Source: Nocardioidaceae bacterium
Lineage (GTDB): Bacteria > Actinomycetota > Actinomycetes > Propionibacteriales > Nocardioidaceae
Length of the DNA: 10,678 nt
NCBI GenBank assembly: GCA_025965395.1
Contig: JAOPXA010000324.1
Span: forward strand, 1-10,678
Reading direction: 5' to 3'
The translations under genes and the position numbers were made by a program. The notes under the pieces were generated by a model. It worked only from the letters and a program-made list of their open reading frames with translations. It was not told where the DNA came from and searched no databases. How positions within the stretch are numbered: position 1 is the first letter of the stretch; each line of letters starts with the position of its first letter. Positions 2,301 to 10,678 of this stretch are shown here, piece after piece.

Positions 2301-3158
2301 TTAGCCGCGCAGAGGGAGACCCGGAACCTCGGCATCGGCACGGAGCACCGTGCCGCCACCGGAGCCCGCGACATACAGCACGTCGAGGTTCGGGCCGCCG
2401 AAGCACACGTTGGCCGCGTTGGTGCCCTCTGGAAGGGGATGACGCGCCACGAAGCTCCCGTGCTTGTCGAAGACCTGGACGGAGCAGTCATGGTTGGTGC
2501 CCACCCAAAGCTGGCCGTCGAGGTCGATCGCCATTCCGTCGGGCCAGCCATCGACGACCCGAGTGAACTCCTCCGGCTCGCCGAGACCCTTCTCGAGGTC
2601 GAATGGGAGGCGCCAGATCGGCTGCGGTGTCATGGTCTGAATGACGAGCAGCGCGTCGCCCTCGGCCGTGAACGCGAGGCCGTTCATCAGCACCGGACCT
2701 TCCCAATGCATCGTGAGGTCGGAGCCGTCGCGCTCGCACGAGAACAGCTTGCCGGGGCGACTCGTGCTCGCATCCTCGGGATCGGGGTCCTCGTCGCCGC
2801 GAGGATCGGTGAAGTAGAGCCGACCGTCGGGGCCAAAGCACAGGTCGTTCGGCGCATCCGGCTCGCCGCCGCGCACGATGTAGGAAAGCTCACCGTTACG
2901 CAGCACCTGGATGCCAGGATCCGTGCCGGGCTTGCCGCCGTAGACCCCGCCGTTTTGGGCGATGAAGACGGCGCCGTCGGCATCGATGACGAGCCCGTTA
3001 GGCCCGCCGCCGACCTCGACGCGCTCGATGATCTCGCCCTCGGGCGTGAAGTGGTAGAGCGAGGCGTGGGTGATCGACACACACCACAACGTCCCATCCG
3101 GCGCCCAGGCGGGGCCTTCGGTAAATCCAAGATCGCTGGCAATGATGTCGAACTGCAT
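2301..3158 (-). CDS. SMP-30/gluconolactonase/LRE family protein
   Basis: This 285-residue protein is a six-bladed beta-propeller of the SMP-30/gluconolactonase family, whose members are metal-dependent lactonases acting on sugar or other lactones. Repeated PDG and GPDG turns (for example APDG, DADG, GPDG, DLDG) mark the blades. Candidate metal ligands match the family pattern: E14 in FTEGPAW, N104 in PNDL, N159 in MNGLAF and D207 in WPDGMAID. There is no signal peptide. The open frame extends to 3227, but ATG at 3158 is chosen because homology begins there and GGGAG lies 6 bases upstream on the minus strand. It is divergent from the LLM oxidoreductase gene and 26 bases upstream of cobL. The substrate cannot be told from sequence, and I see no direct link to cobalamin synthesis beyond position. 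Confidence 0.85.
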   Translation of the reverse strand: MQFDIIASDLGFTEGPAWAPDGTLWCVSITHASLYHFTPEGEIIERVEVGGGPNGLVIDADGAVFIAQNGGVYGGKPGTDPGIQVLRNGELSYIVRGGEPDAPNDLCFGPDGRLYFTDPRGDEDPDPEDASTSRPGKLFSCERDGSDLTMHWEGPVLMNGLAFTAEGDALLVIQTMTPQPIWRLPFDLEKGLGEPEEFTRVVDGWPDGMAIDLDGQLWVGTNHDCSVQVFDKHGSFVARHPLPEGTNAANVCFGGPNLDVLYVAGSGGGTVLRADAEVPGLPLRG

Positions 3159-3177
3159 CGAAGCTCCCAAAGGTCGT

Positions 3178-3188
3178 TTAATGATTAA
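3178..3188. promoter_or_regulatory. AT-rich inverted repeat, candidate operator in divergent promoter region
   Basis: TTAAT-G-ATTAA is a perfect inverted repeat around a central G. Allowing one mismatched pair it extends to CG-T-TTAATGATTAA-G-CG (3175-3191). It lies 20-30 bases upstream of the SMP-30-like start and 46-56 bases upstream of the LLM oxidoreductase start, in otherwise GC-rich DNA. That position suits an operator controlling either or both genes. The binding protein is unknown, and I could not place confident -10 and -35 hexamers for either gene. Confidence 0.4.
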
Positions 3189-3233
3189 GCGGGTCGGCAC
3201 TCCCATCAAACCAGAGCGTGAGGTCATCGCCGT

Positions 3234-6425: not shown

Positions 6426-7039
6426 TGCCCAAAGGACAACCGACCCTTATCCCCGACGACGGCTTGACCACCAACCAGCGCCGCAACCGACCGCTTCTGA
6501 TCGTCAACACCGGCGACGGCAAGGGCAAGACCACCGCCGCGTTCGGCGTAGCGATGCGCAGCTGGAACCAAGGCTGGAACATCGGCGTCTTCCAGTTCGT
6601 CAAGTCCGCCAAGTGGCGCATCGGCGAGCAGTCCGTGCTCGAGACCCTCGCGAAGTTGCACGACGAGACCGGCGTCGGCGGACCGATCGAGTGGCACAAG
6701 ATGGGGTCCGGTTGGTCCTGGTCGCGCAAAGAAGGCACGGGCGAGGACCACGAGCGCGATGCTCAGGAGGGCTGGGCCGAGATCAAGCGGCGCATCGCCG
6801 CCGAGACTCACGACCTGCTCGTGCTCGACGAGTTCACCTACCCGATCAACTGGGGCTGGATCGATATCGACGATGTGGTCGAGACGTTCACCCACCGCCC
6901 CGGGCGCCAGCACATCATCGTGACCGGGCGCCGCGCTGACCCCAAACTCATCGAGATCGCCAACCTGGTCACCGAGATGACCCATGTGAAGCACCCGATG
7001 GACGTCGGGCAAAAGGGCCAGCGGGGCATCGAATGGTGA
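6425..7039 (+). CDS. cobO: Cob(I)yrinic acid a,c-diamide adenosyltransferase (CobO/BtuR)
   Basis: CobO transfers the 5'-deoxyadenosyl group of ATP to the cobalt of cob(I)yrinic acid a,c-diamide or a related corrinoid. The 204-residue protein has the family length. It has a polar N-terminal arm (1-22), then LLIVNTGDGKGKTTAAFGVA with the P-loop GDGKGKTT at 30-37. AMRSWNQGWNIGVFQFVKS and the LLVLDEFTYPINWGW segment follow. The family C-terminal pattern is HIIVTGRRADPKLIEIANLVTEM then KHPMDVGQKGQRGIEW. The start shares a base with the upstream stop (TGATG) and the TGA lies 7 bases inside the cobB start, so the three genes are tightly coupled. Nothing appears missing. Confidence 0.96.
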   Translation: MPKGQPTLIPDDGLTTNQRRNRPLLIVNTGDGKGKTTAAFGVAMRSWNQGWNIGVFQFVKSAKWRIGEQSVLETLAKLHDETGVGGPIEWHKMGSGWSWSRKEGTGEDHERDAQEGWAEIKRRIAAETHDLLVLDEFTYPINWGWIDIDDVVETFTHRPGRQHIIVTGRRADPKLIEIANLVTEMTHVKHPMDVGQKGQRGIEW

Positions 7040-9624
7040 GCCTGCCGCGGCTCATCATTGCCGCACCCGCGTCGGGTCACGGCAAGACGACGATCGCCAC
7101 CGGCCTCATGGCTGCGTTGTCGGCTGCCGGACATACGGTCTCAGGGCACAAAGTGGGTCCGGACTACATCGACCCCGGCTATCACGCACTCGCCACCGGC
7201 CTGCCCGGACGCAACCTCGACCCGCACATGGTCGGCGAGGAACGCCTCGTGCCGCTGCTGCTCGCCGGCGCCAAGAACGCCGAGATCGCGATCGTCGAGG
7301 GCGTCATGGGCCTGTATGACGGACAGATCGGCGGCAACGGCTTCTCCTCGACCGCGCACGTCGCGACGGTCACGCGTACGCCCGTGGTGCTCGTGGTCGA
7401 CATCTCCCACGCGTCGCGCTCGATCGCAGCTGTCGTGCAGGGCATGGTGGCGTTCGACCCGCAGGTACGCATCGTCGGTGTGATCCTCAACAAGGCCGGT
7501 TCCCAGCGGCATGCCGACGAGGTGTGCAGCGCTCTCGAGACCACCGGCGTGCCCGTGCTCGGTGTCTTGCAGCGCGACGACGGGATCGTGGCGCCGTCGC
7601 GGCACTTGGGGCTCGTGCCTGCTGATGAGCGTCATGATGCCGCGCGCACGCTCGATCGTCTCGCCACACAGATCGCGGCCAAGGTCGATCTCGCCGCGAT
7701 CATGCGGTTGGCGCGCGAGGCACCCGATCTCGACGCCGAGCCGTGGGATGCGGCGGACGCGGTTTTGTCGTCCCTGTGGGTTTCGACAAGCTCAACCAAC
7801 GGATCGCGGGTTGAGCGGTCCCCGCTGGATGAGCCGTCCCCGCTGGTTGAGCCTGTCGAAACCCACGAAACCCCCGTCGTCGCGATCGCGGGCGGCCGGG
7901 CCTTCACTTTTCGCTATGCCGAAACCGAAGAGCTCTTGCGGGCCGCCGGGTGCGACGTCGCCTATTTCGACCCGCTCAACGACGAGGCCCTTCCCGAGGG
8001 CACCGCAGGCATCTACCTCGGTGGCGGCTTCCCCGAGGTCCACGCCACCGGTCTTACCGCCAACGAGCCGCTCCGCCGCGCCCTGCGGGAAGCCGTGCGG
8101 GCTGGCACGCCGACCGTTGCCGAGTGTGCCGGACTTCTCTACCTGTGCCGCACCGTCGATGGGTCCCCCATGATCAGCGCGATCGACGCCGAGGCGCGGA
8201 TGACACCACGTCTGACGCTGTCCTACCGTCAGGCGGTCGCTCCCCAGGACACCCTGCTCGCCGCTGCGGGAAGCCGCGTCAACGGGCACGAGTTCCACCG
8301 CACGACCGTGACTCCCGTCCAGGGCGCCGACGCGGCCTGGATCATCGCGGGCGAGTCGATCGGGTTCAGCACACCAACCCTGCACGCGTCGTACCTCCAT
8401 ACGCACTGGGCGGGCTACCCGCAGATGGCCGCCCGATTCGCCCGAGCCGTTCATGCCTACGCACCCGTGACCACCGCTGCGTCCACCACCACCACCACCT
8501 CCACCTCCACCTCCACCTCGCCGAGTGGCGCAAAATCGGGCCGCAACGGGTCATCTGACAACCGATTTGCGCCACTCGCGGGACGAAATGCGCCACTCGC
8601 GGGCACTCACCGGGAGAAATCCGTCGACCTCGCCCACCATGGCGACGCCGAGGTGGACGGGCTGATCGACTTCGCCGTCAACGTGTTCGACGGCGCCCGC
8701 CCCGAGTGGCTCGACGCCGCTCTCCAGGCGAGCCTTGCGCAGACACATACCTATCCGCACGCGGCCGAGGCCGAAGCCGCCATCGCCGCCCGCCACCTCC
8801 GCGGCCCTGGAGAGGTGCTCGCCACGGCCGGCGCCGCCGAAGCGTTCACCCTGATCGCCCGTGCCCGCGCGTGGCAGCGTCCCGTCGTGGTCAACCCGCA
8901 GTTCACCGAACCCGAAGCGGCCCTCCTCGCCGCCGGGCACCAGGTCGAACGTGTCCAGCTCGAGGAAAGCTCGGGGTTCCGCCTCGACCACGAAGCGATC
9001 CCCTACGACGCCGACCTCGTCGTCATTGGCAACCCGACGAACCCGACCGGTGTCCTGCATCCTGAATCGGTGCTGCGCTTGCTCGCCCGACCGGGCCGCA
9101 CCTTGGTGGTCGACGAGGCGTTCATGGACTCGGTCGAAGGCGAACGAGGCTCGCTCGCGTCCGTCCGTCTGCCCGGCCTGCTCGTGGTTCGGAGCCTCAC
9201 CAAGCTCTGGTCGATCCCTGGCGTTCGTGCCGGGTATGTCGTTGGGGCGGAGTCCCTCATCACCGACCTTCGCGCGCAGCAGTCCCCCTGGTCGCTCTCG
9301 ACCACCGCCGCAGCGGCGATTGTCGCGTGCACCGACGAGCGCGCCATCCTCGAGGCCGGCGAACGCGCCCGCACGATCACCAAACACCGCCAGATCCTGA
9401 CTGATGGTCTCGCCGAACTAGGGCTCCACGTCATTGGAGGCTCACAAGCGCCGTTCGTGCTCGTCAAGGTCCCCGACCACCTTCACGCGAGCCTGCGCGA
9501 TGTGGGCTACGCGGTCCGCCGCGCCGACACGTTCCCGGGCCTCGGCCGCGGCTGGGTCCGCATCGCCGTCCGCAAGCCCGAGACCACCCGCAGCCTGCTC
9601 GCCGCGATCGCGTCCCTTCTATAA
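7033..9624 (+). CDS. cobB: Fusion of cobyrinate a,c-diamide synthase (CobB) and CobC-type PLP-dependent protein
   Basis: One uninterrupted 863-residue frame covers two proteins. Residues 1-240 are the CobB ATP-binding domain: APASGHGKTT P-loop (11-20), SGHKVGPDYIDPGYHA and EGVMGLYDG. Residues about 280-475 are its glutamine amidotransferase domain, with nucleophile C365 in AECAGLLYL and catalytic-region H456/H458 in ASYLHTHW. CobB amidates the a and c side chains of cobyrinate. From about 530 a class-I-fold PLP protein of the CobC (Rv2231c-like) type follows: LIDFAVNV, GNPTNPTG and VDEAFMDS, with Schiff-base lysine K724 in SLTKLWSIPGVRAGY. Such proteins are assigned to threonine-phosphate decarboxylation or side-chain supply; the exact reaction is inferred. 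Residues 248-278 and about 484-524 are repeat-derived linkers. ATG 7033 overlaps cobO; GTG 7036 is an alternative start. Confidence 0.93.
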   Translation: MVSLPRLIIAAPASGHGKTTIATGLMAALSAAGHTVSGHKVGPDYIDPGYHALATGLPGRNLDPHMVGEERLVPLLLAGAKNAEIAIVEGVMGLYDGQIGGNGFSSTAHVATVTRTPVVLVVDISHASRSIAAVVQGMVAFDPQVRIVGVILNKAGSQRHADEVCSALETTGVPVLGVLQRDDGIVAPSRHLGLVPADERHDAARTLDRLATQIAAKVDLAAIMRLAREAPDLDAEPWDAADAVLSSLWVSTSSTNGSRVERSPLDEPSPLVEPVETHETPVVAIAGGRAFTFRYAETEELLRAAGCDVAYFDPLNDEALPEGTAGIYLGGGFPEVHATGLTANEPLRRALREAVRAGTPTVAECAGLLYLCRTVDGSPMISAIDAEARMTPRLTLSYRQAVAPQDTLLAAAGSRVNGHEFHRTTVTPVQGADAAWIIAGESIGFSTPTLHASYLHTHWAGYPQMAARFARAVHAYAPVTTAASTTTTTSTSTSTSPSGAKSGRNGSSDNRFAPLAGRNAPLAGTHREKSVDLAHHGDAEVDGLIDFAVNVFDGARPEWLDAALQASLAQTHTYPHAAEAEAAIAARHLRGPGEVLATAGAAEAFTLIARARAWQRPVVVNPQFTEPEAALLAAGHQVERVQLEESSGFRLDHEAIPYDADLVVIGNPTNPTGVLHPESVLRLLARPGRTLVVDEAFMDSVEGERGSLASVRLPGLLVVRSLTKLWSIPGVRAGYVVGAESLITDLRAQQSPWSLSTTAAAAIVACTDERAILEAGERARTITKHRQILTDGLAELGLHVIGGSQAPFVLVKVPDHLHASLRDVGYAVRRADTFPGLGRGWVRIAVRKPETTRSLLAAIASLL
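7776..7866. repeat. REP-like inverted repeat between the two CobB domains
   Basis: Arms of 23 bases (7776-7798 and 7844-7866) are inverted copies with one mismatch, around a 45-base centre. The left arm contains GGTTTCGACAAGCTCAACC and the right arm GGTTGAGCCTGTCGAAACC. The centre holds a tandem pair of 18-base units (7813-7830 and 7831-7848, 16 of 18 identical) starting GAGC and containing GTCCCCGCTGG. These are read in frame as ERSPLD, EPSPLV and then EPVETH. The element forms the linker between the ATPase and glutaminase domains and shares its 19-mer exactly with the repeat in the chelatase gene. Confidence 0.9.
8483..8518. repeat. Simple-sequence tract in the CobB-CobC junction
   Basis: A CCA run passes into four CCACCT units. 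In frame it encodes an alternating Thr/Ser tract. Units are 3 and 6 bases, so slippage would change linker length without breaking the frame. Confidence 0.85.
8522..8603. repeat. Second, unrelated inverted/direct repeat at the CobB-CobC junction
   Basis: CGAGTGGCGCAAAATCGG (8522-8539) is inverted at 8562-8578 as CCGATTTGCGCCACTCG, one T shorter. The 15-mer TGCGCCACTCGCGGG at 8568-8582 recurs directly at 8589-8603, 21 bases apart, giving the in-frame peptide echo FAPLAG and NAPLAG. Its sequence has nothing in common with the GGTTTCGACA element, so it is a different repeat family. Confidence 0.85.
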
Positions 9625-9651
9625 CCCCGGCGCCCCTCCCTGCCGTCGAAT

Positions 9652-9667
9652 CCCATGAGGCCATGGG
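9652..9667. repeat. Short inverted repeat CCCATG-AGGC-CATGGG
   Basis: Six-base arms around a four-base spacer, 27 bases after the cobBC stop. It shares the CCCATGAG motif with the larger palindrome that follows. Confidence 0.5.
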
Positions 9668-9672
9668 AAACC

Positions 9673-9708
9673 GACTCATCTCATGGGTTGCAACCCATGA
9701 GATGCGTC
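9673..9708. repeat. Large palindrome after cobBC, possible terminator or binding site
   Basis: A perfect 28-base palindrome (9677-9704, half-site CATCTCATGGGTTG) extends to 36 bases with a single mismatched pair (GAC and GTC at the ends). It lies 48 bases past the cobBC stop and about 50 bases before the promoter of the toxin-antitoxin module. As RNA it would form a strong hairpin, so it may end the cob transcript, but there is no U tract. With no loop and recurring CCCATGAG units it could equally be a dispersed repeat or a protein binding site. Confidence 0.75.
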
Positions 9709-9760
9709 AACAGCCCGAGGTATGTCAGGCCCACGGTCCTCAGGATCGCTCGCTCCGGTC

Positions 9761-9789
9761 TTGAATCACGTGCCGCAACGACGTACAAT
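9761..9789 (+). promoter_or_regulatory. Promoter of the yefM-yoeB module
   Basis: TTGAAT (9761-9766) and TACAAT (9784-9789) are separated by 17 bases, close to the housekeeping sigma consensus in both sequence and spacing. The -10 lies inside the inverted repeat 9781-9800, as expected for a self-repressed toxin-antitoxin operon. Confidence 0.65.
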
Positions 9790-9800
9790 TTTCTGTACGT
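9781..9800. promoter_or_regulatory. Candidate YefM operator
   Basis: ACGTACA-ATTTTC-TGTACGT is a perfect inverted repeat with 7-base arms and a 6-base spacer, 15 bases before the antitoxin ATG. Each arm matches five of six bases of TGTACA, the known core recognised by E. coli YefM. Overlap with the -10 suggests repression by blocking polymerase. Confidence 0.65.
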
Positions 9801-9815
9801 GAGGATGAGGTGAGT

Positions 9816-10403
9816 ATGAAGACAATGAGCTACTCGGAGTCGCGCGCGAACTACGCAGCGACCCTGGATGCTGTCATCAACGACCGCGAAGAGGTGGTGA
9901 TCACCCGCGCTGGCAGCGAGCCGGTCGTGATCGTTTCTCTCGAGGACTACGAATCCCTCAAGGAGTCGGCCTACCTGCTCCGCAGCCCCGCAAATGCACA
10001 GCGACTCCTGGCGTCCATCGATCGCTTGGAGTCCGACCAAGGCGCAGTGCGGGACCTCGTTGAATCACCCCGCATTGAATGGCCCTGCCTGAATGACCCT
10101 GCGCTGGGACGAATCCGCCTGGGAGGACTACCTGTGGTGGCAGACGCAGGATCGTCGGGTACTCAAACGGATCAATACGCTGATCCGCGACATTCAGCGC
10201 ACGGGCAACGAGGGAATCGGCAAACCCGAGCCCTTGAAGCACGGATTCCAGGGCTACTGGTCCCGGCGGATCACCGACGAACACCGATTGGTCTACAAGA
10301 TCGTCGACGACGAGATCCGCATCGCGTCATGTCGCTACCACTACGCAAGTTGACGATCCGCTGCCCCAGCCAAGCACCCCCACGAACCACCTCGGCACAA
10401 TGA
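9816..10403 (+). CDS. yefM: YefM/Phd-type antitoxin with stop-lost C-terminal extension
   Basis: Residues 1-83 match the YefM antitoxin: MKTMSYSESRANYAATLDAV (DNA-binding N-terminus), VVITRAGSEPVVIVSLEDYESLKE, then AYLLRSPANAQRLLASIDRL (toxin-binding). It should neutralise the adjacent YoeB and repress its own promoter. Family members commonly end about where E83 lies (10062-10064), but here the next codon is TCA, one base from TGA. The frame continues for 112 more residues, across the whole yoeB gene in a different frame, to a TGA at 10401-10403. The extension is Arg/Pro-rich and resembles out-of-frame translation, so only the first part is likely functional. ATG 9816 follows GAGG sites; GTG 9810 or ATG 9825 are alternatives. 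Sequencing error, mutation or true extension cannot be separated here. Confidence 0.85.
   Translation: MKTMSYSESRANYAATLDAVINDREEVVITRAGSEPVVIVSLEDYESLKESAYLLRSPANAQRLLASIDRLESDQGAVRDLVESPRIEWPCLNDPALGRIRLGGLPVVADAGSSGTQTDQYADPRHSAHGQRGNRQTRALEARIPGLLVPADHRRTPIGLQDRRRRDPHRVMSLPLRKLTIRCPSQAPPRTTSAQ
10093..10353 (+). CDS. yoeB: YoeB-family mRNA-cleaving toxin
   Basis: YoeB is a ribosome-dependent endoribonuclease that cuts mRNA in the A site and stops translation when its antitoxin is lost. The 86-residue product has the family length and pattern: WDESAWEDYLWWQ near the start, GKPEPLKHGFQGYWSRRITDEHRLVYKI in the middle, and CRYHY at the end. E46, R65 and H83 correspond in position and context to the catalytic residues of E. 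coli YoeB, so it looks active. Its ATG directly follows a TGA in its own frame (TGAATG), but no gene is translated into that TGA, and there is no clear Shine-Dalgarno. The antitoxin frame runs through it out of phase. This may reduce toxin synthesis. Confidence 0.92.
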   Translation: MTLRWDESAWEDYLWWQTQDRRVLKRINTLIRDIQRTGNEGIGKPEPLKHGFQGYWSRRITDEHRLVYKIVDDEIRIASCRYHYAS

Positions 10404-10678
10404 GCACCGTGACCTACGGCATCGATCTCACCCACCGCGCCGCCGTCGTATTCGGCGGAGACGCGCGAGCGCTCGGCCACGTCGCGGAGCTTCGCCAGGC
10501 CGGTGCCACCGTCACCGTCGTCTCACCCGAGGCGGTCGCCAGCATCGAGGACCTCGCCGACCGCGGACTCATCCAGTGGGACCGCCGTGCGTACGCAACC
10601 ACAGACCTCGACTCCGTATGGATTGCCGTCGCCGTCACGAACGACCCTATCTCCAATCTGCTGATCTCGACTGACGCC
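10400..10678 (+). CDS. cysG: Siroheme synthase / precorrin-2 dehydrogenase N-terminal domain (CysG-type), truncated by window
   Basis: The 93 visible residues read from ATG at 10400 to the right edge without a stop. They fit the N-terminal NAD-binding domain of CysG/Met8-type enzymes that oxidise precorrin-2 and chelate iron for siroheme. TYGIDLTHRAAVVFGG is followed by VAELRQAGATVTVVSPE, DLADRGLIQWDRRAY and DLDSVWIAVAVTNDP, in family order. A C-terminal uroporphyrinogen methyltransferase domain, as in mycobacterial CysG, would lie outside. The glycine-rich loop reads GGDARALG where GGGxVA is usual, which may weaken NAD binding. The ATG overlaps the extended antitoxin stop (ATGA), and no Shine-Dalgarno is evident. 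GTG at 10409 is an alternative start. The cobO, cobB, cysG neighbourhood supports the call. Confidence 0.8.
   Translation, partial: MSTVTYGIDLTHRAAVVFGGDARALGHVAELRQAGATVTVVSPEAVASIEDLADRGLIQWDRRAYATTDLDSVWIAVAVTNDPISNLLISTDA

What the first reader, a model, noticed from the sequence alone, without database searches (positions are those of the whole stretch)
9816..10403. Stop-lost YefM antitoxin reading out of frame through an intact YoeB toxin gene
The antitoxin homology ends at E83 (10062-10064), where related proteins commonly end, but the next codon is TCA, one substitution from TGA. The frame then covers all of yoeB in another phase and ends at 10403. The toxin keeps E46, R65 and H83. 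Normally toxin translation depends on antitoxin termination near its start; here no ribosome terminates there and the toxin has no clear ribosome site. The change could therefore weaken toxin production, or create an antitoxin with a 112-residue tail.
Basis: partly seen in the sequence, partly recalled or inferred. Interest (0 to 1): 0.7.

Follow-up and report, generated by a model that had tools for sequence, protein, structure and literature searches.

The report
Antitoxin gene that lost its stop
In one uncultured bacterium's genome, a short repeat has grown at the join between an ordinary antitoxin gene and its toxin gene, so the antitoxin frame no longer stops there and runs on through the toxin gene out of frame; this is probably a local accident that uncouples the pair, not a new kind of system.

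Summary
The yefM frame (ATG 9816) has no stop until 10401-10403 and runs out of frame through an intact yoeB (10093-10353). Of 109 relative loci, 108 gave both genes; in all 108 the antitoxin stop lies within -10..+4 nt of the toxin start, in 82 as a 4-nt RTGA/TTGA overlap.

The cause is more than one substitution. Against two near relatives the junction carries 29 extra nucleotides, made of near-copies of the unit TGAATGACCCTGCG (10061-10074, 10076-10089, 10090-10103). None of 102 distinct relatives has a comparable copy. The expansion changes phase, and the positions matching the relatives' stop are sense codons in both upstream copies.

The 112-residue tail shows no sign of being a functional domain: the same phase is open through the toxin in 27 of 102 relatives, Pfam finds nothing in it, and a weak model shows no structure there. 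The missing ribosome site is normal for the family. Operator, antitoxin domain and toxin residues look intact.

Best reading: a lineage-specific lesion that uncouples toxin from antitoxin translation. The genome is a 63%-complete, 330-contig assembly; a base error cannot be excluded.

The parts
9761..9789 (+). sigma-70-like promoter of the module: TTGAAT, 17 nt, TACAAT
   Evidence: consensus scan, 9 of 12 matches; 1 found against a mean of 0.3 in shuffles
9783..9798 (.). paired GTAC operator cores at 9783-9786 and 9795-9798, 12 bp apart, over the -10 box
   Evidence: same pair in 103 of 109 loci, window included; 1 of 2180 mononucleotide shuffles; published YefM operator has TGTACA cores 12 bp apart (PMC3920265, PMC7730913, passages)
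9816..10064 (+). yefM antitoxin, conserved part (83 residues)
   Evidence: Pfam PF02604 E 1.1e-21; aligned 1-83 with E. coli YefM 2A6Q_A; strong ribosome-site pairing, -10.6 kcal/mol
10061..10074 (+). junction repeat, copy 1
   Evidence: 11 of 14 identical to copy 3
10076..10089 (+). junction repeat, copy 2
   Evidence: 12 of 14 identical to copy 3; Tandem Repeats Finder array 10076-10102, period 14, 92%
10090..10103 (+). junction repeat, copy 3, holding the toxin start
   Evidence: 0 of 102 distinct relatives have a 12-of-14 copy upstream of this position, best 10
10065..10403 (+). read-through tail of the antitoxin frame: 112 codons, then TGA 10401-10403
   Evidence: open frame; no Pfam family; pLDDT under 50 nearly throughout and no secondary structure in a weak model
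10079..10096 (+). five-codon frame (ATG 10079 to TGA 10094-10096) ending as ATGA on the toxin start
   Evidence: no ribosome site, -0.7 kcal/mol
10093..10353 (+). yoeB toxin, 86 residues, intact
   Evidence: Pfam PF06769 E 1.6e-38; TIGR02116 above its cut-off; aligned with 2A6Q YoeB
10400..10678 (+). start of a cysG-like (precorrin-2 dehydrogenase) gene, cut by the contig end; its ATG overlaps the read-through stop as ATGA
   Evidence: Pfam NAD_binding_7 E 2e-13; cysG_Nterm E 6.9e-11, below its curated cut-off; sequence

Best explanation
This is an ordinary YefM-YoeB toxin-antitoxin module whose antitoxin/toxin junction has been altered in this lineage. Shown: relatives end the antitoxin at the toxin start, most of them in a 4-nt overlap; here the junction is 29 nt longer, is made of near-copies of a 14-15-nt unit that spans stop and start, has sense codons where the stop would fall, and leaves the antitoxin in a frame that next stops 308 nt after the toxin start. 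Inferred: slippage expanded the unit, later changes removed the stops, and ribosomes translating yefM now run over the toxin start and through the toxin gene out of frame instead of ending beside it. The toxin has almost no ribosome site of its own and its family is thought to rely on that termination, so toxin output should fall, while an antitoxin with an unstructured tail, perhaps short-lived, is still made and can still repress the operator. The module is probably quiet or decaying, and the tail has no function of its own.
For: 0 of 108 scorable relatives read through, 82 have the 4-nt overlap. 29 extra nt at the junction against Prescottella and a Rhodococcus plasmid copy; start-to-start distance 277 nt here, 248 in 74 of 109 loci, at most 265 otherwise. 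Repeat structure. Toxin ribosome site weak, antitoxin's strong. Tail without family or structure. Overlap taken as a sign of coupling in S. lividans yefM/yoeB (PMC3303803, passages). Broken yoeB copies occur in the family: 5 of 39 listed matches carry an in-frame stop.
Against: Both proteins look well kept: one departure each at well-conserved columns (34 and 46 columns), dN/dS about 0.13 with saturated dS, and an intact operator; a decaying module could look worse, so the change would have to be recent or harmless, or an error. One genome only; no reads seen. Reduced toxin output is not measured.
Confidence: 0.6

Rival explanations
1. Base-calling or consensus error in the assembly: the organism has a lengthened but normally terminating junction, and the read-through is an artefact of a wrong position in this short, repeat-rich stretch.
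For: The genome is a 63%-complete assembly in 330 contigs; only one genome of the genus is held; no same-species copy was found (best yefM 84%, best yoeB 87% among the 120 listed in each; 90% in Prescottella). Both other frames stop exactly at the toxin start. The proteins are well kept.
Against: The 29 extra nt are diverged copies, not a collapsed or duplicated exact repeat, so the lengthened junction itself is unlikely to be an artefact. Seven of eight other long frames scanned match their families over most of their length (the frame 2301-3227 gave only a sub-threshold match). No error rate was measured.
Confidence: 0.22
2. Regulated gate: the junction keeps the toxin low but not off. The antitoxin frame is the only one open across the toxin start; ribosomes that slip, or that start at the short frame from ATG 10079, end exactly at the toxin start and can restart there.
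For: Stops of both other frames at 10090-10092 and 10094-10096, and a five-codon frame ending as ATGA on the toxin start. In axe-txe, a relative of yefM-yoeB, a short frame ahead of txe raises its translation (PMC8708949, abstract and passages).
Against: The short frame has no ribosome site (-0.7 kcal/mol). I ran no search for slippery sites and saw no strong one by eye. Not conserved in 108 relatives. The frames close there because the repeat unit itself contains these stops.
Confidence: 0.08
3. Relay to the next gene: the long frame matters because it ends on the start of cysG and restores translational coupling that the inserted module had broken.
For: In 8 of 9 family loci holding both genes a cysG start codon lies 5-7 nt before the cobBC stop codon; here the module lies between them and the read-through stop overlaps the cysG ATG as ATGA.
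Against: 10 of the 27 relatives in which this phase outruns the toxin also end in ATGA, GTGA or TTGA, so the tetranucleotide is common. The cysG start is itself a prediction. Post hoc.
Confidence: 0.05
4. A true long antitoxin with a working C-terminal tail.
For: Open frame of 195 codons; four long homologues share the tail phase.
Against: No family in the tail, no predicted structure, not conserved in 108 relatives. Likeness among the homologues' tails follows from the conserved toxin DNA underneath.
Confidence: 0.03

Closest known systems
Actinobacterial yefM-yoeB modules (S. lividans/S. coelicolor, PMC3303803; Prescottella subtropica L031; Rhodococcus gordoniae plasmid pDND3A L197)
   Same: Gene order, both protein families, operator type, weak toxin ribosome site; yoeB 90% and yefM 76% identical to Prescottella's
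   Different: Those end the antitoxin in an overlap with the toxin start; here 29 extra nt and no stop
E. coli YefM-YoeB (2A6Q)
   Same: Antitoxin aligned 1-83, toxin 1-84, active-site residues kept
   Different: Antitoxin of normal length
axe-txe of Enterococcus with its minigene (PMC8708949)
   Same: Same toxin family; a short frame lies just ahead of the toxin
   Different: There the minigene has a ribosome site, ends 15 nt before txe and was shown to raise toxin translation, and axe ends normally as far as the passages show; here the short frame lacks a ribosome site, overlaps the toxin start and is untested

Membership tests
YefM-YoeB type II toxin-antitoxin module | Antitoxin of the Phd/YefM family upstream | tested here: met
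   PF02604 above its cut-off; PRK11409 hit below its equivalog cut-off, 96.9 against 121 bits
YefM-YoeB type II toxin-antitoxin module | Txe/YoeB toxin downstream with its active-site residues | tested here: met
   PF06769 and TIGR02116 above their cut-offs; E46, R65, H83, Y84 aligned
YefM-YoeB type II toxin-antitoxin module | Operator with paired cores 12 bp apart | tested here: met
YefM-YoeB type II toxin-antitoxin module | Antitoxin ends at or near the toxin start (usual, not strictly defining) | tested here: not met
   stop at +308 against -10..+4 in 108 of 108 relatives
YefM-YoeB type II toxin-antitoxin module | Toxin stops growth and antitoxin neutralises it | not testable with these tools
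   bench assay needed
Minigene-regulated toxin, axe-txe type | Short frame just ahead of the toxin | tested here: met
   ATG 10079 to TGA 10096
Minigene-regulated toxin, axe-txe type | Ribosome site for the short frame | tested here: not met
   -0.7 kcal/mol for ATG 10079 and for TTG 10075
Minigene-regulated toxin, axe-txe type | Translation of the short frame raises toxin output | not testable with these tools
   reporter assay needed

The most novel reading that the evidence does not exclude
A natural toxin-antitoxin junction in which the antitoxin frame is the only one left open across the toxin start, while both other frames stop exactly there: a translational gate in which only slipping or newly started ribosomes reach the toxin, and in which the antitoxin frame goes on to couple to the downstream cysG gene.
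Probability: 0.06. Interest if true: 0.75.

Novelty: new variant of a known kind. Interest (0 to 1): 0.3.

Why it matters
If the bases are right, this is a natural experiment on the idea that type II toxin dose is set by antitoxin termination at the toxin start: the coupling is removed while promoter, operator, antitoxin core and toxin look intact. It would also show one route, growth of a short repeat across the stop/start overlap, by which a module may fall silent without losing either gene. If it is a sequencing error it matters only as a warning about stop losses seen in one genome.

Tried and rejected
Missing ribosome site as something special: rejected. Tail as a conserved or folded domain: rejected (the model is poor overall, mean pLDDT 49.2, from 37 rows with few over the tail). 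Same-species intact copy in the protein database: none among the 120 listed hits (best 84%) or (best 87%). Viral contigs gave two YoeB loci at 70% and 57% identity, not examined further. Plasmids: 24 records, none covering 80% of the query; one of them, H1, was opened. In one search the G185 row was on the wrong strand and is ignored. An estimate of the assembly's frameshift rate was planned and dropped as too weak; no such rate is claimed. L028 had no scorable antitoxin and is left out's count; some genomes came in by both, so loci with identical junction and toxin DNA were merged for (102 distinct relatives). One search used 101 distinct loci, window included; 94 (YefM) and 95 (YoeB) rows passed an identity filter, and 67 of 73 and 88 of 94 pairs gave a usable dN/dS. 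Literature: searches listed no paper on a stop-lost or extended YefM that I could recognise from titles and abstract starts; they cover the held open-access library only, one search listed 20 of 24, one search listed 12 of 21 and one search listed 10 of 385.

Full report
What is there. The window is one contig (C72) of a fragmentary assembly, 62.7% complete in 330 contigs, the only genome held of its genus. Its family includes genomes whose loci match named Aeromicrobium and Nocardioidaceae records (the family assignment is my inference). The window is a cobalamin-gene region, and at its end lies a YefM-YoeB module. The yefM frame starts at ATG 9816 and has no stop before TGA 10401-10403. Its first 83 residues are a complete antitoxin: Pfam PhdYeFM, aligned with E. 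coli YefM in 2A6Q. yoeB at 10093-10353 is complete and keeps E46, R65, H83 and Y84.

Is the read-through unusual? I collected relatives by family search and by a scan of one genome per species, of which the best 80 loci are kept. Of 109 relative loci (L002-L110), 108 gave both genes. In all 108 the antitoxin stop lies between -10 and +4 nt of the toxin start, in 82 as an ATGA, GTGA or TTGA overlap; the window's lies at +308. Among long homologues in the protein database, 8 of the 120 listed (of 229 found) align to more than half of the 195-residue query. I read these eight and nine others. P0002, P0003, P0005 and P0024 run into the toxin in the same phase as the window (aligned); by eye, P0004 does so and then returns to the toxin frame, P0018 and P0056 use the other phase, and P0046 is in frame with the toxin. 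Each of the eight is known from one contig, five under 1.3 kb and three of 23-49 kb. Such frames exist elsewhere but look rare, and some may be errors.

Why it reads through. The distance from antitoxin start to toxin start is 277 nt here, 248 nt in 74 of 109 loci, and at most 265 in the rest. Aligned with Prescottella subtropica and a Rhodococcus gordoniae plasmid copy, the window has 29 extra nucleotides at the junction (the fourth row, G185, was on the wrong strand and is ignored). The extra DNA consists of near-copies of the unit that spans the toxin start: 10076-10089 matches 10090-10103 at 12 of 14, and 10061-10074 matches it at 11 of 14. Tandem Repeats Finder reports 10076-10102 on its own. 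In 100,000 dinucleotide shuffles of 10050-10089, 145 reached the first match and none both. Elsewhere in the window the same kind of double match occurs only inside two other tandem arrays. None of 102 distinct relatives has a 12-of-14 copy; the best is 10. I infer that a stop/start overlap like the relatives' was expanded by slippage and that the copies then diverged: where relatives stop, the first two copies now have sense codons, and the third is out of phase.

What the tail is. It has 112 codons, rich in R and P, with no Pfam family and no predicted secondary structure (a weak model, mean pLDDT 49.2). The phase it uses is open across the whole toxin in 27 of 102 relatives and for at least 102 codons in 19, so its length needs no selection. 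I see no reason to call it a protein domain.

What the change should do. In S. lividans yefM/yoeB the overlap is taken as support for translational coupling (PMC3303803, passages). E. coli YefM-YoeB is placed in a class expected to set the antitoxin excess by translation (PMC5535158, passages). The window's toxin start has the usual weak predicted ribosome pairing (-3.4; median -3.7, rank 53 of 103), the antitoxin a strong one (-10.6). Ribosomes that read yefM here pass over the toxin start and through the toxin gene out of frame, so toxin output should fall; this is inference. Two features leave room for residual toxin: both other frames stop at the toxin start (10090-10092, 10094-10096), and a five-codon frame from ATG 10079 ends as ATGA on it. 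A short frame before the toxin raises toxin translation in axe-txe (PMC8708949, abstract and passages), but here the short frame has no ribosome site (-0.7).

State of the rest. The operator is intact: GTAC cores at 9783 and 9795, 12 bp apart, as in 103 of 109 loci, window included, and as in the published operator (PMC3920265 and PMC7730913, passages). Both proteins look well kept: one departure each, at 34 and 46 well-conserved columns, which 37 of 94 and 57 of 95 rows equal or exceed; median dN/dS is about 0.13 with dS above 1. This fits a recent change, a module still in use, or a base error; the present data do not separate these. Of eight other long frames scanned against NCBIfam, seven match a family over most of their length, some just below the curated cut-off, and one (2301-3227) only weakly. 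I measured no error rate and saw no reads.

Surroundings. Of 29 relative loci fetched with the cysG-like protein, 9 also hold cobBC; in 8 of the 9 a cysG start codon lies 5-7 nt before the cobBC stop codon, and in L122 the two are about 640 nt apart with an opposite-strand open frame between. In the window the module and a dispersed palindromic repeat lie between them. The read-through frame ends in ATGA on the cysG start. That is suggestive, but 10 of 27 comparable relatives end in ATGA, GTGA or TTGA too, so I treat it as coincidence unless tested.

Verdict. A real-looking, so far single-genome variant of a known module, best read as a junction lesion that uncouples toxin from antitoxin. The main rival is a sequence error in a fragmentary assembly.

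Noticed in passing
9638-9738: A dispersed repeat with an 18-bp perfect-joint palindrome (9673-9708) lies just upstream of the module; matches were found in 22 other contigs of the same assembly. It looks like a REP-like or miniature element.
   Followed up: partly
9625-10399: The repeat and the module sit between cobBC and a cysG-like gene, which overlap in 8 of 9 family loci that hold both; the module looks like an insertion into a cobalamin operon.
   Followed up: partly
10400-10403: The read-through stop overlaps the cysG-like start as ATGA; possibly chance.
   Followed up: partly
7033-9624: CobB and CobC are one fused gene, above the cut-off of the NCBIfam model bifunc_CobBC.
   Followed up: no
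L023, L024, L025 and L028: Three family relatives have a stop inside the yoeB match, and L028 has no recognisable antitoxin: damaged modules occur in the family.
   Followed up: no
P0046, P0072, P0075, P0119: Metagenome proteins that carry antitoxin and toxin domains in one frame (Pfam labels; sequences).
   Followed up: no
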